From contig OMVS01000006.1 in assembly GCA_900314575.1 (NCBI GenBank), forward strand, positions 1 to 51,706: a stretch of 51,706 bases of DNA, in the 5' to 3' direction. Within the stretch, counting starts at the first letter, position 1. Every line of letters begins with the position of its first letter. The notes below the pieces were generated by a model. It made no database searches, was not told where the DNA came from, and saw only the letters and a program-made list of their open reading frames with translations. This document shows, piece after piece, positions 1,587 through 34,952 of this stretch. The DNA comes from an uncultured Olsenella sp. Its GTDB lineage: Bacteria > Actinomycetota > Coriobacteriia > Coriobacteriales > Atopobiaceae. A program made the translations under genes and the position numbers.

Positions 1587-1790
1587 GCATCCTCCAATTG
1601 TGTGGTTTCTCACAAAACCGCAGTTAGGTGTATCATTCGTCTGTATCGACACTAATCATAAGCCTCCCGCGTTGGCAAGCCTTGGCAATCCGCTGCATGA
1701 AATCGGCGCGGGAATGTCCCCAGGGGAGTGCCCCTCAGTCTATCAAGACGATGCGTCCCAAGGGGACACACTCACACGATCGGAGACCCC

Positions 1791-3668
1791 GTGTCCGAAT
1801 TCGATGGCTACGACACGCCCAGGGAGAACGGCTCCGAGGCAGACGACACGTTCCCCCAGCCCGGCGCTCGCAGGGGCCCGGGCGCCCACTTCCGTACGAG
1901 CACGGGGGCCAGCGGTTCCGGCGCTCAGGGCGCGCCGGCCCACGCCAAGCACGCGACGCACGCGCAGCAGCCTGGCGGCGCAGCCGACGATACGCCCGCG
2001 TGGCAGGCGGCCTTCTCGCACGCGGACCCCGACTCCACGGCGGTGTACCTGGAGGCGGCGAAGCACCGCGCATCGCACGCGGCGCACGCGGACGCCGCCG
2101 CCGAGGCGGACATCGACAGGATCATGTCCGACATGGGTGACGGCGCGGACTCCCCCGTCTTCCCCGATGCCTCTGCTTCTCCCGCCACGCCTGACTCGGC
2201 CGGAGCAGCGGACGGTGCGCCCGACGGTGCCGACGCGACGGGCGACTACGAGGACGACGAGCCGACCGCGGTCCTGGACGGCGACGACATCGCCGCACGC
2301 GCCGCCTCGGACACGGGCACCACGGCCGACGGCGCCCTCGGCGCTGCCGACGCGGCTGGCTCCCCCGCCGGCTTCAAGCCGCTCGCACAGGTGGGCGAGG
2401 GCACCCGCAACGCCAAGGACGCCCCCAAGGAAAAGCCGAACCCCTACGACCTCGACCCCACCGGCAAGAAGGCCAAGCGCAAGCACCGCGTCCTTATCGG
2501 CGTACTGATCGGAATCGCAATCGTGCTCCTGGCGGGCGTCGGCGCAGTCGCCGCATACGTGCACAACATCAACACCAAGCTCACCAAGAACGTGGACAAG
2601 AGCCTCATCTCCGAGCTCACCACCACCGAGCCCGGAGACCCCTTCTACATGCTTCTGCTGGGCACGGACCGCGACGAGGAGCGCGCGGAGAGCTCCGAGT
2701 ACGGCTCGGATGACAGCGCCTACCGCTCCGACTCGATCATGCTCGTGCGCATCGACCCGAAGAACGTCAAGGTGACCATGGTCTCGATTCACCGAGACAC
2801 CCTCGTCGACCTCGGCGAGCACGGACAGCAGAAGATCAACGCCGCCTACTCGATCGGCGGGGCGTCATACGCCACGCAGGTGGTGTCCGAGTTCGCCGGC
2901 GTCGACATCTCGCACTACGCCGAGGCCAACCTCGACTCGTTCGCCTCGGTCGTAGACCAGGTCGGCGGCGTCACCGTCAACCTCCCCACGCCGGTCCACG
3001 ACCCCAACTACACCGGGCTCGAGCTCGAGGCGGGCGAGCAGACGCTCGACGGCCACACGGCAGCCCTCCTGTGCCGCTGCCGCCACGGCTACGACGCATA
3101 CGGCGACGGCGACCTGTACCGCGCCGCCAACCAGCGCATGGTGATCGCCGCGGTCGTGCAGAAGGTCCTGCAGAGCGACCCCGCGACCATCGCGAGCACC
3201 ATCACCACCATGGCCGACAGCGTCACGACCGACATGACCGTCGCGGACATCCTCGACCTGGCGAACCAGATGAAGACGCTCAACGTCGACACCGACATCA
3301 TGACCGGCATGGAGCCCACGACCTCGAGCTACTTCAACTCCACCTGGTACGAGATCTGCAACGTGAGCTCCTGGCAGAAGATGATGGCCCGCGTCGACCA
3401 GGGGCTGTCGCCCTACGAGGACAACTCCCAGGACGCCACGGTCGGCGTGGCCGGCTCCATCGGCAATGGCAGCGACCAGGACGATACGAGCGAGGACTTG
3501 ACCTCCAGCGATGCTAGCGCGGACGACTCCGAGACCACCACGACGGAGGTGACCTCGACGGCCGGCGCCAACGCCGTGGAGCCCACGGGCTCCGGGTCGA
3601 GCTCCTCCGGATCCGGGTCGAGCTCCTCCGGCTCCGGCTCGAGCTCCTCCGGCAGCCGACGTCAGTAG
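1791..3668 (+). CDS. LCP family (LytR-CpsA-Psr) cell-wall glycopolymer ligase with long cytoplasmic tail
   Basis: LCP proteins transfer lipid-linked glycopolymers onto peptidoglycan on the outer face of the membrane. I place the start at the GTG at 1791, preceded by GGAG, because the more upstream frame is not protein-like; this gives 625 residues. Residues 1-232 are a hydrophilic Ala/Asp-rich tail, 233-256 form a single membrane helix, and about 284-440 form the LCP domain. The domain shows FYMLLLGTD, RSDSIMLVRID, VSIHRDT and the Arg-rich CRCRHGYDAYGDGD...RAANQR stretch. A Ser/Gly tail closes the protein. Orientation is N-in, domain outside. The cytoplasmic tail is much longer than usual for the family. 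A hairpin terminator follows at 3781. The exact glycopolymer substrate cannot be read from sequence. Confidence 0.92.
   Translation: MSEFDGYDTPRENGSEADDTFPQPGARRGPGAHFRTSTGASGSGAQGAPAHAKHATHAQQPGGAADDTPAWQAAFSHADPDSTAVYLEAAKHRASHAAHADAAAEADIDRIMSDMGDGADSPVFPDASASPATPDSAGAADGAPDGADATGDYEDDEPTAVLDGDDIAARAASDTGTTADGALGAADAAGSPAGFKPLAQVGEGTRNAKDAPKEKPNPYDLDPTGKKAKRKHRVLIGVLIGIAIVLLAGVGAVAAYVHNINTKLTKNVDKSLISELTTTEPGDPFYMLLLGTDRDEERAESSEYGSDDSAYRSDSIMLVRIDPKNVKVTMVSIHRDTLVDLGEHGQQKINAAYSIGGASYATQVVSEFAGVDISHYAEANLDSFASVVDQVGGVTVNLPTPVHDPNYTGLELEAGEQTLDGHTAALLCRCRHGYDAYGDGDLYRAANQRMVIAAVVQKVLQSDPATIASTITTMADSVTTDMTVADILDLANQMKTLNVDTDIMTGMEPTTSSYFNSTWYEICNVSSWQKMMARVDQGLSPYEDNSQDATVGVAGSIGNGSDQDDTSEDLTSSDASADDSETTTTEVTSTAGANAVEPTGSGSSSSGSGSSSSGSGSSSSGSRRQ
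3591..3653 (+). repeat. three 21-bp tandem repeats encoding SGSSSSG
   Basis: Three consecutive in-frame 21-bp units begin at 3591, 3612 and 3633. Each encodes the heptad SGSSSSG, and they differ from one another at one or two bases. They form the extracytoplasmic C-terminal linker of the first LCP protein. Unit number could change by slippage without breaking the frame. Confidence 0.85.
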
Positions 3669-3813: not shown

Positions 3814-3919
3814 GTGGACTTCCGGGAGAAGGACCCCGCCCATCCCGCAGCCACTAAACTAGATGAACTGCAACTGCCGCCGCGCCGCCTTGGCGCAGAG
3901 AGTAACCCGAGGAGTCCGC

Positions 3920-5449
3920 TTGCTTCGCCGCAAAGACAAAGACCAGGGTACGCAGCCTTCCAGCGAGCCCACGCCCGTGCCGCACTACACGGCGCGCGTC
4001 CTCTCCAGGGAGAGCTCCTCCGAGAGGTACGCCAAGAAGCGGCGCGAGCGCTCCCGGCACCACGGCCTCAAGGTCGCGCTTCTCACCGCCCTCGCGGTCG
4101 TCCTAGCCGCCGTCCTGGGCGTCGGCGGCTACCTGTACAGCCTCGGGTACCGCATCGGCACGAACGACCAGGATCTTCTCGCCAGCCTCTCCTCCACCTC
4201 CTACGACCAGCCCTTCTACATGCTGCTGATGGGCGTGGACACTGGCGAGGAGCGCCTCGCGGAGGGCGACACGGGGCGCTCGGACTCGATGATGCTCGTT
4301 CGGATCGACCCCGTGAACGTGAAGGTCACGATGGTCTCGCTGCATCGCGACACGCTGGTGAGCATCGAGGGGCACGGTGAGGGGAAGCTGAACTCGGCCT
4401 ATGCCTACGGTGGCAGGAGCCTTGCGGTCAAGACGGTGAACAAGCTTTCGGGCGTCGACATCTCGCACTACGCCGAGGTGGACTTCGACTCGTTCACCAG
4501 CATTGTGGACTCGATTGGCGGCATCACGGTCAACCTCCCCACCGACGTCTACGACCCCGATTACACGGGCCTCGACCTCAAGGCGGGCGAGCAGACCCTC
4601 GACGGCAACACGGCGCTGCTGCTGTGCCGCTGCCGGCACGCCTACGACGCGTACGGTGACGGCGACACCTACCGCGCGGCCAACCAGCGCATGGTGATCG
4701 CCGCCATCGTGAAGAAGGTGCTCGCGAGCGACGCCGCCACCAAGATAGGCGCCATCTCCTCCATGGCCGACAGCATCACCACCGACATGTCGCTCGGCGA
4801 TATCTTCGGCCTCGCGAACCAGATGAAGGGCATCGACTTCGACGAGGACGTCTACACCGCCATGACCCCGACGGAGGGCTTCTACTACAACGGCGCGTGG
4901 TACGAGAAGCTCGACACGACCGCCTGGAAGACGCTCATGCAGCGCGTGGACGAGGGGCTGCCGCCGTACGAGGACAGCAGCCAGGACAAGACGCGTGGCG
5001 TCGCCGGCTCGGTCTCGGACGCCGAGGCTGGCTCGGGGTCAGGCGACGGCACGTCGCAGTCCGAGTCGTCGGATGGCGGCTCAACGGGCTCCACGGGCGG
5101 CGCCTCGGGCGCCTCCGCGGGCGGCTCTTCGGACAACGCGACGGACAACGCGACGGGCTCCGGCACCGTGATGGTGCTCAACGGTGCGGGCGCCCCCGGG
5201 CTGGGAACCTCCGTCGCGAACCGCCTCTCCGCGCTCGGCTACGACACGCAGTCGCGGAACGCGGCGAGCTTCAGCTACACGAAGACCGAGGTCTACTACA
5301 ACGGGGCCGACAACAAGCAGCGTGCGGAGGCCATCGCCAGCTCGCTCGGCAACGGAATCACCGTTACCGCGAACGACGGGTCGGTCACCACCTCGACTGA
5401 CGTCGTGGTGGTTGTCGGAGAGGCTCAGGCAGACCTGGCCGACCGATAG
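3920..5449 (+). CDS. LCP family cell-wall ligase with LytR_C domain
   Basis: This is a second LCP glycopolymer-peptidoglycan ligase, a tandem paralogue of the preceding gene. I chose the TTG at 3920 because GAGGAG lies 5 bases upstream; the ATG at 3863 has no such signal. The product is 509 residues. A short basic cytoplasmic segment precedes a membrane helix at about 51-73. The LCP domain at about 98-260 contains FYMLLMGVD, RSDSMMLVRID, VSLHRDT and CRCRHAYDAYGDGD. A Gly/Ser-rich linker leads to a C-terminal LytR_C-type domain at roughly 425-500, which includes VMVLNGAGAPGLG. The first paralogue lacks that last domain, so the two probably differ in how they bind the wall. A weak TAAACT near 3855 could be the -10 of its own promoter. 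Confidence 0.92.
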   Translation: MLRRKDKDQGTQPSSEPTPVPHYTARVLSRESSSERYAKKRRERSRHHGLKVALLTALAVVLAAVLGVGGYLYSLGYRIGTNDQDLLASLSSTSYDQPFYMLLMGVDTGEERLAEGDTGRSDSMMLVRIDPVNVKVTMVSLHRDTLVSIEGHGEGKLNSAYAYGGRSLAVKTVNKLSGVDISHYAEVDFDSFTSIVDSIGGITVNLPTDVYDPDYTGLDLKAGEQTLDGNTALLLCRCRHAYDAYGDGDTYRAANQRMVIAAIVKKVLASDAATKIGAISSMADSITTDMSLGDIFGLANQMKGIDFDEDVYTAMTPTEGFYYNGAWYEKLDTTAWKTLMQRVDEGLPPYEDSSQDKTRGVAGSVSDAEAGSGSGDGTSQSESSDGGSTGSTGGASGASAGGSSDNATDNATGSGTVMVLNGAGAPGLGTSVANRLSALGYDTQSRNAASFSYTKTEVYYNGADNKQRAEAIASSLGNGITVTANDGSVTTSTDVVVVVGEAQADLADR

Positions 5450-5514
5450 GGACTCGACGCAAGCCGTCGCAAGTAGTGGCTGGCCCGCGCGGCACCTCCG
5501 TCTCGCGCTTGGCT

Positions 5515-5579
5515 CAAGGTGAGGAACCGGTCGTTTTTCTCGGTCTGAGACGCCTGGTTTCGAACGCTTTCTCACCTTG
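5515..5579. repeat. 65-bp inverted-repeat element, copy A
   Basis: Two 19-nt arms in inverted orientation (5515-5533 and 5561-5579) match at 16 of 19 positions and enclose 27 unrelated bases. All four arms of copies A and B fit CAAG-K-TGAG-R-A-W-B-CG-K-TCG, with 14 invariant positions. Copy B at 7207 has exactly the same length. No T-tract follows, so simple intrinsic termination is not an obvious role. Confidence 0.8.
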
Positions 5580-5806
5580 GGCGATCCCTTAATCAAGGAC
5601 GCCTAGGACAGCCTGGTCACTGCGGCACCAGGCCGGGCCCCGGGCCATACCTGCCGCCGAGTCGCCGGGCCGTCCCGAACGGCCCGTGCCTTGGGCCGCG
5701 ACCATGCCGATGGCTCGAATGACCGGCGGACACGAGGGTCGCCGCAATCGAGCGCGTCGGACTGGAATCGGATGCGTCGGACGCGCGTCGCTGAGCTAGC
5801 TTTGTT

Positions 5807-5820
5807 CGAACATCCGTTCG
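5807..5820. promoter_or_regulatory. candidate LexA (SOS) box
   Basis: The sequence CGAACATCCGTTCG is a perfect dyad of the Gram-positive/actinobacterial type CGAAC-N4-GTTCG. It lies 82 bases before the start codon at 5903. A possible -35 (TTGTTC, 5802) and a poor -10 (TAAGAC, 5825) flank it, so a bound repressor would cover the promoter. That LexA binds here is inferred from the consensus only. Confidence 0.6.
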
Positions 5821-5902
5821 CCGATAAGACTCCGCCCCTCCCCTCTCAGCCCATCATCTGGCGTATTCTTCTGTCCACTTTCCTCTTGGCAGGAGGTGGT
5901 AC

Positions 5903-6943
5903 ATGAGCACGCGGGGCCTAGCGATGCAGCGCCTCAGCCAGGCCTTCCACGGAGGCAAATGCCTTCATGCCAAGACCGACGCCGAACGGCAGAGCCTGCG
6001 TCGCCTGGTCAGAAACGGGCTCGTCTGCTCGCCTTCACGCGGTCTGTTCGTCCGCGCCGAGGACTGGAGGTCCCTAAACTCGCGCGCGCGTGCGCTCATG
6101 ATCATCCGCTCGATGTCTGCCATGCATCCGGACTGGGTGTTCTGCGACGTGAGCGCCGCGGTCGTTCATGGTCTCGCCGTGTCGTTCCATCTGCTCGGAC
6201 AGGTCCATATCGCCGTGCCCAAGTCACGCCATGGGAGAAGCACCACCAAGGTCATCCGTCATTCGACCGGAAGCTGCCCCGTCGTGCAGGTCGGCGGCAT
6301 CAAGGTCACATCGCTCCCGCGCACGGTTCTCGACTGCCTGCGCGGGAGAAGCTTCGCCGAGGGGCTCGTCATCGCTGACTCCGCCCTCCGTATGAGCGGC
6401 GCCACCGCCACATCCTTCGAGGGGACCCTCAGGCGACTCGGCAGGGGCCTGCACGGCATTCGACACGCTCTCTCGACCTTGTCGCACGCAGACCCGAGAA
6501 GCGAGAGCGGGGGCGAGTCGTTGGCCCGTGCGCTCATGATAGAATTCGGGTTTCGTCTGCCTGAGCTCCAGGTAACCGTGCGGAGCACCCTAGGCGACGG
6601 CCATTTCTATCGGCCTGACTTCATGTGGAGGCTGCCAAGCGGAATCGTATACGGAGAGTTCGACGGAAGGGAGAAGTACGTCGATCCCGCCATGACGCAC
6701 GGAGCGAGCGCCGCCAGCGTGATGGCCGACGAGCGGCTTCGGGAGTCACGCCTCAGCGCGACGGGTCGCGTTATGCGGTTCTGCTATGCGGACCTGCGCT
6801 CCCCTGCGCGGTTGGCAAGATTGCTTGATGGCTTTGGCATTCCTCGTGACAGAAGGCCCGTCTCGCTCGACTTGCGACCGAGTTCGCGACGCGGAAGGCC
6901 GACCACACGGCAGTCTACGCGGCGGGCCGCCATCACGGCGTGA
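5903..6943 (+). CDS. AbiEi-like N-terminus fused to DUF559/Vsr-like nuclease-fold domain
   Basis: The product has 346 residues; the ATG at 5903 follows a strong AGGAGGTGGT. Residues 1-55 resemble an AbiEi-type winged helix (LRRLVRNGLV...SRGLFV), and 75-165 follow the AbiEi-family pattern (SAAVVHGLAV, VHIAVPK, VTSLPRTVLDCLR). The C-terminal part (about 197-310) matches the DUF559/very-short-patch-repair-like PD-(D/E)xK pattern: SESGGES (Glu205), RPDF (Asp239), GEFDGREKY (Glu252, Asp254, Lys258) and VMRFCYADL. It may therefore bind and cut DNA, but no activity is shown. No AbiEii-type toxin gene lies on either side, so a classic AbiE toxin-antitoxin pair is unlikely. Base composition is less GC-rich than its neighbours, and it ends in TGA, a minority stop here. 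A LexA-type box precedes it and 65-bp palindromes flank it on both sides. Confidence 0.75.
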   Translation: MSTRGLAMQRLSQAFHGGKCLHAKTDAERQSLRRLVRNGLVCSPSRGLFVRAEDWRSLNSRARALMIIRSMSAMHPDWVFCDVSAAVVHGLAVSFHLLGQVHIAVPKSRHGRSTTKVIRHSTGSCPVVQVGGIKVTSLPRTVLDCLRGRSFAEGLVIADSALRMSGATATSFEGTLRRLGRGLHGIRHALSTLSHADPRSESGGESLARALMIEFGFRLPELQVTVRSTLGDGHFYRPDFMWRLPSGIVYGEFDGREKYVDPAMTHGASAASVMADERLRESRLSATGRVMRFCYADLRSPARLARLLDGFGIPRDRRPVSLDLRPSSRRGRPTTRQSTRRAAITA

Positions 6944-7571
6944 CATCCCTCGCATCCCAGTGTCGACTGGGGCCATGCCGAGCAGAGCACCCCACATCCA
7001 CAAGCCACACGATTCCCCAGTGGCGCGCGTAGCGCCGGCGCCATGCTGCGTCGGGGCGTTCTCCGCACCGGCGGTCCCGTCTAGCTCGGCAGCGCCCTCT
7101 AGCCCGGCGACGAGCATCTCGTAGTCCGCCCTCAGCAGCGTTTCACGTCGGAGGTACCGGAGACGCTGGACACGCCCCCCGGCCCTGACACCTGCCTGCT
7201 TACATCCAAGTTGAGAATCCGGTCGGATTCTCCTGTCCATTTGTCGCAGATACGACCGAATTCTCACCTTGGATTCCCGCGCCACGCCGGATGGCCTATC
7301 GTCTCACTCGAGCCATCCATTCTCATCCTACCCATCTAGGCCCAGACGAGCGGGCGCAGAACGGCAACGAGCCCGACCAGCACGGGAGAAGATCCCGCGC
7401 CAGCCGGGCCCATCTATCTGGACGCCCGCGGCACCACTGGGGTACCAGCCGAATCCGCCCGCCTGGACGCCCGCGGCACCACCGCAGCGCCCATGGCGCC
7501 ACCGCAGCGCCAGCCGGGCGCGCCGCCGGAGGCTTCGGCATCGCCCGGAGCGTCAGCCGACGTCGGTGCGC
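6944..7571. other. 628-bp region without an intact gene
   Basis: It contains a 6-bp hairpin just after the preceding gene (CCCAGT with ACTGGG, 6956-6971), palindrome copy B at 7207-7271, and a proline-rich coding relic from about 7385 onward. Between 6975 and 7200 I see no convincing feature. Confidence 0.6.
7207..7271. repeat. 65-bp inverted-repeat element, copy B
   Basis: The arms (7207-7225 and 7253-7271) are inverted copies matching at 17 of 19 positions and share the copy A consensus. The identity reaches ATCC outside both arms. The left arm also contains a separate perfect 8-bp hairpin, GAGAATCC with GGATTCTC, around GGTC at 7213-7232. Aligned without gaps, A and B agree at 41 of 65 positions. 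Identity is concentrated in the arms and nearly absent in the middle. Confidence 0.8.
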
Positions 7572-7585
7572 CTACTTGCTGCTGA
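7385..7585 (+). pseudogene. relic of a Pro/Ala-rich coding sequence, probably frameshifted
   Basis: A plus-strand frame reads PSIWTPAAPLGYQPNPP followed by AWTPAAPPQ. Near 7490 the proline-rich reading continues in another frame (APMAPPQRQPGAPPEA) and ends at a TGA at 7583. A 20-bp direct repeat (7418-7437 and 7463-7482) lies 45 bases apart, an in-frame multiple of three. No start codon or domain is recognisable. The 3' end overlaps the end of the convergent lipoprotein gene by 14 bases. This could also be chance coding potential in GC-rich DNA. Confidence 0.25.
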
Positions 7586-8699
7586 CGACCTCCTTGTCGG
7601 CCGTCATCTCCTTCCACTTGGCGAGCACCGCCTCGCGGTCCGGGCCGAACTTGGTCGTGTCCTCCTTCATGAGCTGCGACGTGTCGAAGGTGCCATCGAC
7701 GCCCTGGACGTCCGGGATGCACATGAGGATGGTGCTCTTCTTGTCGATGCTGGCCAGGTACGCGAGGTTCTCGTCGTTGCTGAAGAGCCACTCGACGAAC
7801 AGCTTGGCGTCGTCGACGTCGTCCGCGTTCTTGAACACCGCGACGCCGTCGGGCATGTAGGGCATGCCCTCGCTCGGGTACACGAGCTCGAGGTTGCCGC
7901 CCGAGAGGATCTCGTCGAGCGTGCCGTCGATGTAGGTGATGCCGACCCCCGCCTCGCCGCTGCTCACGCGGGTGGACGGGTCGGAGCCGCGCTTGGTGTA
8001 GTACGGGATGTTCTGGTTCAGCTGGCTCAGGTACTCCCAGCCGGCGTCCTCGCCCATGTTCTGGAGAAGGGCGTCGACCGCGGCGTAGTTGGTGCCGGAC
8101 ACGGCCGGCGTGGACATGATGATCTCGTCCTTGTACTCGGGCTTCACCAGGTCCGTCCAGCTCGCGGGCTTGTTCGCGCCGACCTCTCCGAGGATGTCGT
8201 TGTTCACGATGAAGCCCACGACCGTGGCACCCTTGCTGAACCAGTAGTTGTCCGGGTCCTTGAACGTGTCCGCGAACCGAGACGCCGCGTCGAAGTTGAC
8301 CTGCTCGAGCAGGCCGGAGTCCTTGGCGGACATGAACGAGTCGATGCCGCCGCCGAACCACAGGTCGGCCGCCGGCGTGCCTCCCTCGGCCTTGAGCTTG
8401 GAGAGCGCCTCGCCCGAGGACATGGACACGAACTCGACCTCGCAGCCCACGTCCTGCGTGAAGCGGTCGAAGAGCTTCTGGTACGACTCGCTCGTGCAGA
8501 TGACCTTCATCGTCTTGCCCGAGGTGGACTTGAGGTTCGTCTGGTTCGAGCTCGACGACTGGGCCTGGCTTGCGGACGACCCGCCGTCCGTCGCATTCGA
8601 GCCGGAACCCGAACAACCGGTCACGGCGAGCGCGGAGAGCGCGACCGCGGATGCGGAGCCGAGGATGAACGAGCGTCTGGATAGGACCTTCTTTGCCAT
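7572..8699 (-). CDS. ABC transporter substrate-binding lipoprotein, FutA/AfuA-like, Tat signal
   Basis: This 375-residue protein is the extracytoplasmic binding component of the importer formed with the next two genes. Its N-terminus combines a twin-arginine motif (SRRSFIL) with a hydrophobic stretch and a lipobox ending at Cys29 (AVTGC), so it is predicted to be a Tat-exported lipoprotein. A Ser/Gln-rich linker follows, then a class II periplasmic-binding fold with ADLWFGGGIDSF and VSSGEAGVGITYIDG. These features fit iron(III)-type binding proteins such as FutA, AfuA and BitA. Phosphonate or other small anions cannot be excluded. The start codon overlaps the stop of the ATPase gene (TAATG), implying translational coupling. 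Confidence 0.88.
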   Translation of the reverse strand: MAKKVLSRRSFILGSASAVALSALAVTGCSGSGSNATDGGSSASQAQSSSSNQTNLKSTSGKTMKVICTSESYQKLFDRFTQDVGCEVEFVSMSSGEALSKLKAEGGTPAADLWFGGGIDSFMSAKDSGLLEQVNFDAASRFADTFKDPDNYWFSKGATVVGFIVNNDILGEVGANKPASWTDLVKPEYKDEIIMSTPAVSGTNYAAVDALLQNMGEDAGWEYLSQLNQNIPYYTKRGSDPSTRVSSGEAGVGITYIDGTLDEILSGGNLELVYPSEGMPYMPDGVAVFKNADDVDDAKLFVEWLFSNDENLAYLASIDKKSTILMCIPDVQGVDGTFDTSQLMKEDTTKFGPDREAVLAKWKEMTADKEVVSSK

Positions 8700-9655
8700 T
8701 AGGCACCTTCCTTCCATTCGAGGGGGCGCGCCACGTCGAAGCGCACGGAATCCCCCACTTTCAACACGAGCGAGCGGTCCTGCCTTACCCTGACCACCTG
8801 CCCGTCGACATCGATCGCGTACTCCCACTGGGAGCCGAGGAACATCGCCTGCACGACCCTGCCCGAAAACGCCCCGTCTGGCGTGAGCCGCGCGCCCTCC
8901 TTGCGGAAGGCCACGGTGCAGCCGTCTCCGAGCCGCAGCTCGTTCACGCTGCCCAGGAAGCGCGCGCAGTAGGCGTCGCACGGGTGGTCGTAGACGTCGA
9001 GCGGCGCGCCCTGCTGCACTACCTTCCCGTGGTGGAGAAGGGCGATGCGGTCGCCGATCGCCATCGCCTCCTCCTGGTCGTGCGTGACGAACAGCATGGC
9101 GATGTCGAAACGGCGCTGGACCGCCCTGACCTCCTCGCGCATGCGCACCCGCAGCCCGGCGTCCAGGTTCGAGAGCGGCTCGTCCAGGAGGAGCGCCTTG
9201 GGCTTGAGGACGAGGGCCCGCGCGAGCGCGACGCGCTGCTGCTGGCCGCCCGAGAGCTCGGAGGGGTACGCCCCCGCACGCTCCGCCATGCCCACCGTCT
9301 CGAGCATCTCCCGGGCGCTGGCCTCACGCTCTTCTCGGCCCATGCCCTGCAGACGCAGGCCGAAGGTGACGTTGTCGAGGACCGTCATGTGCGGGAACAG
9401 CGCGTAGGACTGGAACACCGTCGCCACCGGGCGGAGCTCCGGCGGGCGGCTGCCCATCTCCTCGCCATCGATGAGCACCTGGCCGGAATCCGGCAGCAGG
9501 TAGCCTCCGACGGCCCGGAGCGCCGTGGTCTTGCCGCAGCCTGAAGGCCCGAGGAGGCAGACGAGCTCCCCCCTCTCGACCGTGAGGCTGAGCCCGTCCA
9601 GGACCGAGGTCCCGCCGTATCCGACCCTGAGGTCGCGCAGATCAAGCATCGGCAT
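8699..9655 (-). CDS. ABC transporter ATP-binding protein, FbpC/PotA-like
   Basis: This is the cytoplasmic ATPase of the metal-type importer, 318 residues. It shows Walker A GPSGCGKTT, the Q-loop at VFQSYALFP, signature LSGGQQQRVALARAL, Walker B LLLDEP and the switch His in FVTHDQEEA. After about residue 235 comes a C-terminal regulatory region (TOBE-like) as in FbpC, PotA and CysA relatives. I start at the ATG at 9655 (MPMLDLRDL), which follows AAGGAGG. Its start lies inside the 3' end of the permease gene (14-base overlap) and its stop overlaps the binding-protein start, so the three genes form one coupled operon. Confidence 0.95.
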   Translation of the reverse strand: MPMLDLRDLRVGYGGTSVLDGLSLTVERGELVCLLGPSGCGKTTALRAVGGYLLPDSGQVLIDGEEMGSRPPELRPVATVFQSYALFPHMTVLDNVTFGLRLQGMGREEREASAREMLETVGMAERAGAYPSELSGGQQQRVALARALVLKPKALLLDEPLSNLDAGLRVRMREEVRAVQRRFDIAMLFVTHDQEEAMAIGDRIALLHHGKVVQQGAPLDVYDHPCDAYCARFLGSVNELRLGDGCTVAFRKEGARLTPDGAFSGRVVQAMFLGSQWEYAIDVDGQVVRVRQDRSLVLKVGDSVRFDVARPLEWKEGA

Positions 9656-34584: not shown

Positions 34585-34952
34585 GGGGGCGACTGGTTTC
34601 GACAGGGTAGGTCTGAGATGGGAAGCAAGCCGTGGTCGCCTCTCCACGCTAATCAGGGACACCGTCAAATTTAATTGACAACACTGATTCTTACGAGCCT
34701 CTGGCTCTTGCTGCTTAGTTAACCTAACCAGCACGTCAATCCGTCGGTCTCCCCTGCCGGCGGTGCGGCGTCATCTCAGGGGGATGCGCGTGCGGACGTA
34801 GCCGGTATGCCGCACGCCAAGGCCGAACCGGCTCGGACGCCGAACGCGGGTCACCGGGTGCGAGGCGTCCTAGACCCAACCGGTGACTGAGCTTGGAGAA
34901 ACCCGTCAGGGACCTGCCTTGGACCGGAGTTCGATTCTCCGCGCCTCCACCA
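34585..34952 (+). ncRNA. ssrA: tmRNA (ssrA)
   Basis: tmRNA with SmpB rescues ribosomes stalled on broken mRNAs and adds a degradation tag. The 5' GGGGGCGACTGGTTTCGAC pairs through its first seven bases with CGCCTCC before a genome-encoded ACCA end at 34949-34952, giving a tRNA-like acceptor stem with one G-T pair. The T-arm GGAGTTCGATTCTCC is present. The tag frame runs 34677-34718 from GAC to a TAG stop and encodes DNTDSYEPLALAA, expected after a tRNA-derived Ala; the ALAA end is the usual protease signal. A strong terminator follows. Confidence 0.97.

What the first reader, a model, noticed from the sequence alone, without database searches (positions are those of the whole stretch)
5903..6943. 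Solitary AbiEi-like protein with a PD-(D/E)xK-type C-terminus and no toxin partner
The N-terminal half follows the AbiEi antitoxin pattern, while the C-terminus carries Glu205, Asp239, Glu252-x-Asp254 and Lys258 in a DUF559/Vsr-like arrangement. An antitoxin-like DNA-binding module joined to a possible nuclease, without AbiEii nearby, is not the textbook AbiE system. Such proteins are common in Actinobacteria but, as far as I know, without an established function.
Basis: partly seen in the sequence, partly recalled or inferred. Interest (0 to 1): 0.5.

Follow-up and report, generated by a model that had tools for sequence, protein, structure and literature searches.

The report
Nuclease gene paired with dispersed palindromes
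A lone bacterial protein that joins an antitoxin-like DNA-reading part to a DNA-cutting-type part sits between copies of its own palindromic repeat, and in some related bacteria the matching repeat is scattered through the genome, which points to an unrecognised class of gene-plus-repeat system.

Summary
The 346-aa ORF at 5903-6943 is a solitary two-part protein: residues 2-197 take the AbiEi fold (6y8q, Z 9.5) and 201-314 a Vsr/EDxHD-homing-endonuclease-like fold (3r3p Z 8.0; 1vsr Z 6.8). E205, D239, E252, K258 are invariant, D254 73 of 74. The genome has no AbiEii and relatives share no partner gene. Two ~70-bp palindromes (5512-5582, 7205-7273) with the same half-site and 44-bp offset bracket the gene. 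In relatives (Atopobiaceae, Collinsella, Eggerthellaceae) upstream and downstream flanks carry copies of one locus-specific repeat (53 of 76 loci; 2 of 131 control genes). In three genomes with one gene copy the repeat is dispersed: 45, 48 and 699 half-sites, reversed controls 0-1, congeners 0-1. Five of seven genomes checked lack any RAYT-type transposase. Best reading: an arrangement like REPIN/RAYT with an unrelated enzyme, an antitoxin-derived reader plus Vsr-type nuclease that binds, and probably cuts and helps spread, its own palindromes. Binding, cutting and spreading are inferred.

The parts
5903..6943 (+). CDS, 346 aa, solitary AbiEi-like/Vsr-like fusion protein
5906..6493 (+). AbiEi-like two-domain part (residues 2-197; winged-helix matches at about 1-57)
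   Evidence: 6y8q AbiEi Z 9.5 over 178 aligned residues; 1zel Rv2827c Z 6.4; PADLOC AbiEi models
6503..6844 (+). Vsr/EDxHD-like nuclease domain (residues 201-314) with E205, D239, E252, D254, K258, R280
   Evidence: 3r3p Z 8.0, 3hrl Z 7.2, 1vsr Z 6.8; conservation
5891..5897 (+). ribosome-binding site AGGAGGT
   Evidence: read
5512..5582 (.). upstream palindromic unit: half-site AGGTGAGGAACCGGTCG at 5517-5533 (+) and AGGTGAGAAAGCGTTCG at 5561-5577 (-), offset 44
   Evidence: (DNA fold z -3.4)
7205..7273 (.). downstream palindromic unit: half-site AGTTGAGAATCCGGTCG at 7209-7225 (+) and AGGTGAGAATTCGGTCG at 7253-7269 (-), offset 44
   Evidence: (DNA fold z -5.7)

Best explanation
The gene is the protein half of a gene-plus-repeat system. 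Shown: most sampled alleles are bracketed by palindromic units made of inverted half-sites that differ from locus to locus; in several genomes the same units are also dispersed; the protein has the AbiEi fold followed by a Vsr/EDxHD-like nuclease fold with an invariant acidic/lysine set. Inferred: the AbiEi-like part binds the half-sites, two molecules meeting head to head over one unit (as AbiEi binds inverted repeats, and as the EDxHD enzyme I-Bth0305I dimerises on a target of nearly 60 bp); the nuclease cuts or nicks near the variable centre of the unit; repair or replication of the broken palindrome copies units to new intergenic places and lengthens or shortens their arrays. The result is a population of non-autonomous palindromes kept by a solitary nuclease gene that itself stays put, working like REPIN/RAYT but with an unrelated enzyme. 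Likelihoods as I see them: association real 0.95; protein binds the units 0.8; nuclease active on them 0.65; it drives their dispersal 0.45.
For: Upstream and downstream flanks resemble each other in 24 of 31 loci (above the 95% point of 300 mismatched pairs) and in 53 of 76 named loci above the 99% point of 600 mismatched pairs, against 2 of 131 neighbouring control genes (recounted). Dispersal: the half-site of the single gene copy in G041 occurs 699 times there (reversed control 1) and 0 times in congeners G040, G042, G038; that of G040/G039 occurs 45 and 48 times (controls 0 and 1), and 1, 0, 0 times in congeners G041, G042, G038; Eggerthellaceae arms occur 19, 19 and 24 times in G140, G141, G142 (controls 0), 3 in G143, 0 in G144. 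281 of 284 clustered half-sites in sampled G041 DNA lie outside called genes. In 30 Gordonibacter units the arms pair with compensatory changes, the central bases are free and flanks are unrelated from about 4 bp outwards. The gene locus is orthologous in G140 and G141, but the other sampled sites share no flank. Y1 transposase is absent from G000, G039, G040, G140, G142. Literature: AbiEi and Rv2827c bind 23-bp inverted repeats (PMC7319586, passages); EDxHD dimer on nearly 60 bp (PMC3943268, passages).
Against: No binding, cutting or movement was seen. Of 26 G040 clusters, 23 could be mapped to G039 (about 99% identical) and all 23 have half-sites there, two sharing one G039 cluster; 3 could not be mapped. 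So recent movement is not visible. Clean empty sites with target duplications were not obtained. In the window's own genome only four units were found, and by the plain flank-similarity test the window gene (12.5), L002 (10.0) and L003 (11.5) fall below the cut of 13. Both units near L002 lie upstream of it. 23 of 76 loci fail the 99% cut, and at the looser 95% cut 18 of 131 control genes also pass. One allele tested (G059) shows no dispersal. Flank similarity between loci rises with protein identity but is confounded with synteny. Two genomes with dispersed units (G041, G141) do hold Y1 transposases.
Confidence: 0.5

Rival explanations
1. The units are operators. The protein is a DNA-binding regulator (autorepressor and, where units are many, a regional regulator or nucleoid-type protein) and the units spread by recombination and slippage without it.
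For: AbiEi proteins autoregulate through inverted repeats (PMC7319586, passages). Tandem half-sites at a constant pitch of 20, 30 or 31 bp suit cooperative binding. Units are mostly intergenic and stable between G039 and G040.
Against: In the 53 loci above the 99% cut the upstream copy ends a median 227 bp (quartiles 148-312) before the start codon and a like copy begins a median 59 bp after the stop codon, unlike a promoter operator. The nuclease residues are invariant, which a pure regulator would not need. Discrete units in unrelated flanks, up to 699 half-sites, suggest copying.
Confidence: 0.27
2. A whole-cassette mobile element: palindrome-gene-palindrome moves as one piece, the palindromes being its ends.
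For: In three Eggerthellaceae loci (L186, L195, L204) the unit is compact: a near-perfect palindrome of about 54-59 bp starting about 150 bp upstream and a like one 2-8 bp downstream of the ORF. Several genomes hold 2-7 divergent copies with varied neighbours.
Against: G040, G039 and G041 hold one gene but 45-699 half-sites, so units multiply without the gene. The gene locus is conserved between G140 and G141 (77-79%). Copies in the window's genome are 37-70% identical, not recent.
Confidence: 0.1
3. A solitary abortive-infection or restriction-like defence protein (an AbiE offshoot), its repeats being incidental.
For: AbiEi-like N-terminus is found by defence-system models; Vsr-like nucleases occur in restriction contexts (recalled).
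Against: No AbiEii, no conserved partner; the recurring neighbours look like ordinary genes such as an ABC transporter, a helicase, a DNA polymerase and a tRNA synthetase (names are my reading of the sequences). It does not explain allele-matched dispersed palindromes.
Confidence: 0.08
4. Ordinary hairpins or terminators that happen to lie near the gene.
For: Intergenic hairpins are common (general knowledge).
Against: 2 of 131 neighbour genes against 53 of 76; no terminator-like site in 5440-7580; window half-site 5 matches against 0.75 expected, 4 of them in the two units, 0 of 100 shuffles reaching 5 (pattern drawn from these sites).
Confidence: 0.03

Closest known systems
REP/REPIN repeats with RAYT (REPtrons, TIRtrons)
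   Same: Partner gene flanked by palindromes that are also dispersed between genes in the same genome; repeat families matched to a particular partner gene (PMC8049555 passages; PMC3733652 abstract and one section).
   Different: The partner is not an HUH/Y1 tyrosine transposase: no Pfam match for the protein at E<=1, and an AbiEi plus Vsr-like fold instead. Units are 54-70 bp palindromes or arrays of half-sites. Whether they carry a GTAG- or CGTC-like tag was not examined.
Type IV toxin-antitoxin AbiE (antitoxin AbiEi)
   Same: Full AbiEi fold in residues 2-197; inverted repeats next to the gene.
   Different: No AbiEii toxin, an added nuclease domain, inverted repeats on both sides of the gene and, in relatives, dispersed.
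EDxHD homing endonucleases (I-Bth0305I), Vsr and DUF559 nucleases
   Same: C-terminal fold (3r3p Z 8.0, 1vsr Z 6.8, 3hrl Z 7.2; the DUF559 label of 3hrl is recalled); a long palindromic target suits an enzyme that dimerises on nearly 60 bp (PMC3943268 passages).
   Different: Conserved set here is E...D...ExD...K, without the histidine of the EDxHD name; not inside an intron or intein as far as seen; carries an AbiEi-type reader.

Membership tests
REPIN/RAYT system | partner gene is an HUH (Y1) tyrosine transposase | tested here: not met
   window protein has no Pfam match at E<=1; whole-genome PF01797 search: 0 in G000, G039, G040, G140, G142; 2 in G041, 1 in G141, none with the repeat within about 1.5 kb
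REPIN/RAYT system | palindromes flank the partner gene | tested here: met
   53 of 76 loci against 2 of 131 control genes; window units
REPIN/RAYT system | palindromes dispersed in intergenic DNA of the same genome | tested here: met
   met in relatives G039, G040, G041, G140, G141, G142; in the window's genome only four units were found, all near gene copies
REPIN/RAYT system | partner protein moves the repeats | not testable with these tools
   needs experiment
AbiE type IV toxin-antitoxin | AbiEi fold | tested here: met
   Z 9.5 to 6y8q
AbiE type IV toxin-antitoxin | AbiEii nucleotidyltransferase toxin in the operon | tested here: not met
   none in the window's genome; no neighbour family in more than 6 of 80 loci
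Vsr/EDxHD/DUF559 nuclease fold (PD-(D/E)xK superfamily) | alpha-beta nuclease core with conserved metal-binding acids | tested here: met
   fold, 86 residues. Z values of 7-8 are middling, but several members of this fold group line up over the same 201-314 range; metal binding itself not tested
Vsr/EDxHD/DUF559 nuclease fold (PD-(D/E)xK superfamily) | Pfam/NCBIfam DUF559 or Vsr match | tested here: inconclusive
   no match; absence in a profile scan does not exclude it
Homing endonuclease | gene inside an intron, intein or its own target site | tested here: inconclusive
   the gene stands alone between ordinary genes and is flanked by its repeat; intron or intein models were not searched

The most novel reading that the evidence does not exclude
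An independent, non-HUH counterpart of REPIN/RAYT: an antitoxin-derived DNA reader fused to a Vsr/EDxHD-type nuclease, each allele with its own palindromic code, that builds and maintains populations of palindromes (from four units in the window's genome to 699 half-sites in G041) in Coriobacteriia.
Probability: 0.45. Interest if true: 0.9.

Novelty: new variant of a known kind. Interest (0 to 1): 0.8.

Why it matters
One class of REP repeats (CGTC) is reported to lack any dedicated transposase (PMC3733652 abstract). A second, unrelated kind of partner enzyme would show that solitary nucleases can hold palindrome populations in bacterial genomes, would give a role to a protein type that defence-system models now label AbiEi, and offers many natural protein/DNA-site pairs for reading the specificity code of AbiEi-type domains. 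Nine searches of the paper library (listings seen) showed no description of it; that library holds only part of the literature.

Tried and rejected
A BLAST search of the window's upstream unit in its own genome found only itself. A strict spaced pattern found no pair. A looser half-site pattern was swamped by chance matches (204 against 99 for the reversed pattern, only the first 100 or so listed); among the 30 loci fetched by it only the window and C85 sites formed inverted pairs, so further or diverged units elsewhere are not excluded. Dispersal was not seen for every allele: GCCGGATATTACG of G059 occurs 4 times there, two beside the gene and two at one other place, against 0-4 in five other genomes. 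A cluster of units at 1.26-1.29 Mb in G040 was looked at for a cassette arrangement; the ORFs between units looked ordinary by my reading. A 5.5-kb segment between two G040 units is missing from the matching G039 place, with breakpoints at the units, which fits recombination between units. Sequence search of solved structures found nothing useful. Foldseek against PDB gave no match at E<=0.001; the fold assignment rests on the VIA second look. Against viral models two unnamed or uncharacterised proteins match at E<=0.001, and models named Vsr, DUF559 or homing endonuclease follow at E 0.004-0.06.

The first conservation script read all loci on one strand and is void; one search replaces it. 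A2 holds the window plus 73 of 80 loci; left out were six of other length or broken (L181, L188, L217, L230, L243, L251) and L198, which has a disrupted C-terminus. In one search one incomplete unit (L284) of 31 was left out.

Full report
WHAT IS THERE. The ORF at 5903-6943 (+) is real: ATG start, AGGAGGT at 5891-5897 (five bases before the ATG), 346 aa. It stands alone, 453 bp after the upstream LytR-CpsA-Psr gene (3863-5449 +) and about 630 bp before the stop of a solute-binding-protein ORF on the other strand (7572-8981 -). Residues 9-184 match 10 AbiEi models (best E 4.4e-9); of 74 aligned proteins 63 match the commonest AbiEi model at E<=0.01. AlphaFold2 with 74 sequences gives mean pLDDT 92.6. 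The model aligns with S. agalactiae AbiEi 6y8q over residues 2-197 (Z 9.5, rmsd 6.9, 178 aligned) and with Rv2827c (Z 6.4), and at 201-314 with the catalytic domain of homing endonuclease I-Bth0305I (3r3p, Z 8.0, 2.6 A, 93 aligned), ngo0050 (3hrl, Z 7.2) and Vsr (1vsr/1cw0, Z 6.8). The high rmsd to 6y8q would fit two domains in a different pose (inference). Foldseek alone gave no PDB match at E<=0.001.

CATALYTIC RESIDUES. E205 lies on the helix that opens the nuclease domain (203-215), D239 just before strand 240-244, E252 and D254 at the end of strand 247-254, K258 on the next short helix and R280 on helix 270-285. In 32 loci found by whole-protein search D239, E252, D254, K258 are 32 of 32, and E205 31 of 31 with a residue there. 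In alignment A2 (74) D239, E252, K258, R280 are 74 of 74 and D254 73 of 74. E205 is also 74 of 74, but the scan that supplied A2 was seeded on a peptide containing it. Many loci come from the same organisms, so the two counts are not independent. These are conserved residues in a nuclease-like fold; activity is not shown.

SOLITARY. No AbiEii (PF08843) in the window's genome; the control search rings in 4 of 14 genomes. Among neighbours of 80 relatives no protein family recurs in more than 6 loci; median gap upstream 429 bp, downstream 219 bp; the downstream gene is on the same strand in 31 of 79 (crude gene caller). There are three copies in the genome (100, 70, 37% identity), and at least one in 92 of 140 genomes of the same family, up to 7 per genome.

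THE PALINDROMES. The window gene is bracketed by inverted repeats at 5512-5582 and 7205-7273. Both hold the half-site AGGTGAGnnnnCGnTCG as an inverted pair with an offset of 44 bp. The pattern with one mismatch occurs 5 times in the window, 4 of them in these units, against 0.75 expected; none of 100 shuffles reached 5 (similar result). The pattern was drawn from these sites, so this shows sharing between the two sides rather than an independent discovery. Both fold as single-stranded DNA better than shuffles (z -3.4 and -5.7). Two further units with a like half-site and offset lie on contig C85, both upstream of paralogue L002, at about 0.2 and 1.5 kb (the offset of the nearer one is my reading). 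Paralogue L003 has four copies of a different 22-bp half-site downstream. No terminator-like or promoter-like pattern was found in 5440-7580.

GENERALITY. Of 32 loci, 31 had enough flank, and 24 of these have an upstream flank that resembles their own downstream flank above the 95% point of mismatched pairs. For 76 of 80 named loci the counts are 60 above the 95% point (13.0) and 53 above the 99% point (16.5), own median 30 against 10.5 (recounted; four dropped for short flank or broken ORF). For 131 neighbour genes of like length in 55 of the loci the counts are 18 and 2, so the stricter cut is the fair one. In the 53 loci the two copies are in direct orientation in 35; the upstream copy ends a median 227 bp before the start codon, the downstream copy begins a median 59 bp after the stop. 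The window gene scores 12.5, L002 10.0 and L003 11.5 on this test, below both cuts; their link rests on the half-site evidence. Forms differ: single near-perfect palindromes of about 54-59 bp in Gordonibacter and Paraeggerthella; symmetrical arrays of half-sites at 20-bp pitch in G040/G039, at 31 with a last 17 in G041, at about 30 in G128, G059 and G084. Loci below the cut include Bifidobacterium myosotis L250 and several Collinsella, Olsenella, Slackia, Raoultibacter and Paraeggerthella loci.

DISPERSAL. G041 (3.2 Mb, one contig, one gene copy) holds 699 matches to its gene-flanking half-site (one mismatch allowed), reversed control 1; congeners G040, G042, G038 and the window's genome hold 0, the more distant G072 8 against control 3. 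G040 and G039, one gene copy each, hold 45 and 48 of theirs (controls 0 and 1), in 26 clusters each by my count of the list; congeners G041, G042, G038 hold 1, 0, 0. Eggerthellaceae G140, G141, G142 hold 19, 19, 24 arms, controls 0; G143 3, G144 0 (gene copy number there not determined). G059's half-site is not dispersed. In 20 sampled 20-kb stretches of G041, 281 of 284 clustered half-sites lie outside called genes, which cover 74%; in G040 113 of 122, in G140 20 of 30 and G141 22 of 31 (crude caller). Six of the 20 G041 stretches hold no match and two only one isolated match; eight of the stretches had been chosen because one search listed matches there, so the sample does not give a density.

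MOBILITY. In 30 of 31 Gordonibacter units (picked by their arms) arm positions 1-18 form Watson-Crick pairs in 27-30 of 30, with up to three pair types at one position, so both arms change together; observed pairing 0.91 against a maximum of 0.87 in 1000 re-pairings; the middle is free, and pairing falls to chance by 4 bp outside. That looks like discrete copied units. The gene locus is orthologous between G140 and G141 (77-79%), but among the other 11 G140 and 13 G141 stretches no flank was shared at E<=1e-10; the one further non-palindrome match is 183 bp at 71% between the gene-locus stretch L265 and L274. Sites were picked with at most one mismatch, so diverged counterparts could have been missed. 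Two G140 sites were followed up. For L269, the G142 region aligned on both sides has no arm with up to 4 mismatches, nor has the G141 region, aligned on one side only; for L266, the G141 region aligned on both sides has one 4-mismatch arm, the G142 region (one side only) none. The intervening DNA also differs, so these are not clean empty sites. Against recent movement, 23 of 26 G040 clusters map to G039 (about 99% identical) and all 23 have half-sites there, two sharing one G039 cluster; 3 could not be mapped; arrays differ by gaps of mostly about 20 bp or multiples. RAYT-type enzymes do not explain the units in five of seven genomes: PF01797 is absent from G000, G039, G040, G140, G142; the two in G041 and one in G141 have no unit within about 1.5 kb.

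HOW IT MOST LIKELY WORKS. AbiEi proteins, described as monomers, bind 23-bp inverted repeats (PMC7319586, passages read), and EDxHD nuclease I-Bth0305I dimerises on nearly 60 bp (PMC3943268, passages). Units of 54-70 bp with inverted half-sites and a free centre fit two molecules reading two half-sites and cutting between them. I propose that cutting and repair copy and reshape the units, the gene staying put. Binding is likely, cutting plausible, spreading a hypothesis. The main rival is a regulator whose operators spread by recombination.

KNOWN OR NEW. It works like REPIN/RAYT (PMC8049555 passages; PMC3733652 abstract and the section on transposases) but is not a member, since the HUH transposase is missing. 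It is not an AbiE system, since the toxin is missing. Nine paper searches listed no description of such a system; much literature is outside that library.

Noticed in passing
L003:2570-2689 (contig C41 of the window's genome), downstream of paralogue L003: Four copies of a 22-bp half-site GCAAATCGCTTTTATCGGACAA in alternating orientation, unlike the window's units: a possible second repeat code in the same genome.
   Followed up: partly
L120 (G040 1264637-1270111) against L129 (G039): A 5.5-kb segment between two units is missing at the matching place in the sister genome, with breakpoints at the units, as if units serve as recombination sites.
   Followed up: partly
G039 C69 about 2.8-37.6 kb and G040 about 992-1021 kb: Between units the two sister genomes carry different DNA of about 30-35 kb, possibly islands.
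   Followed up: no
L158-L177 (G041): Of 12 stretches not chosen for known matches (0.5 Mb and every 0.2 Mb from 0.9 to 2.9 Mb), clusters appear in 4 (1.5, 2.3, 2.5, 2.7 Mb); distribution along the chromosome may be uneven, but the sample is small.
   Followed up: no
L293 (G141): A Y1 transposase (PF01797, E 1.2e-15) that looks RAYT-like by my reading, with no Gordonibacter unit in the 3.3-kb locus.
   Followed up: partly
L254:3178-4360: A control gene whose two flanks resemble each other strongly (score 187.5), origin not examined.
   Followed up: no
window 34585-34952: tmRNA gene with tag DNTDSYEPLALAA.
   Followed up: no
window 1728-3668 and 3863-5449: Two adjacent LytR-CpsA-Psr family genes upstream of the finding.
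   Followed up: no
L010 / L188 (Olsenella massiliensis): One family member is split into two ORFs, a likely pseudogene or a sequencing error, while a repeat remains on both sides (score 35).
   Followed up: no
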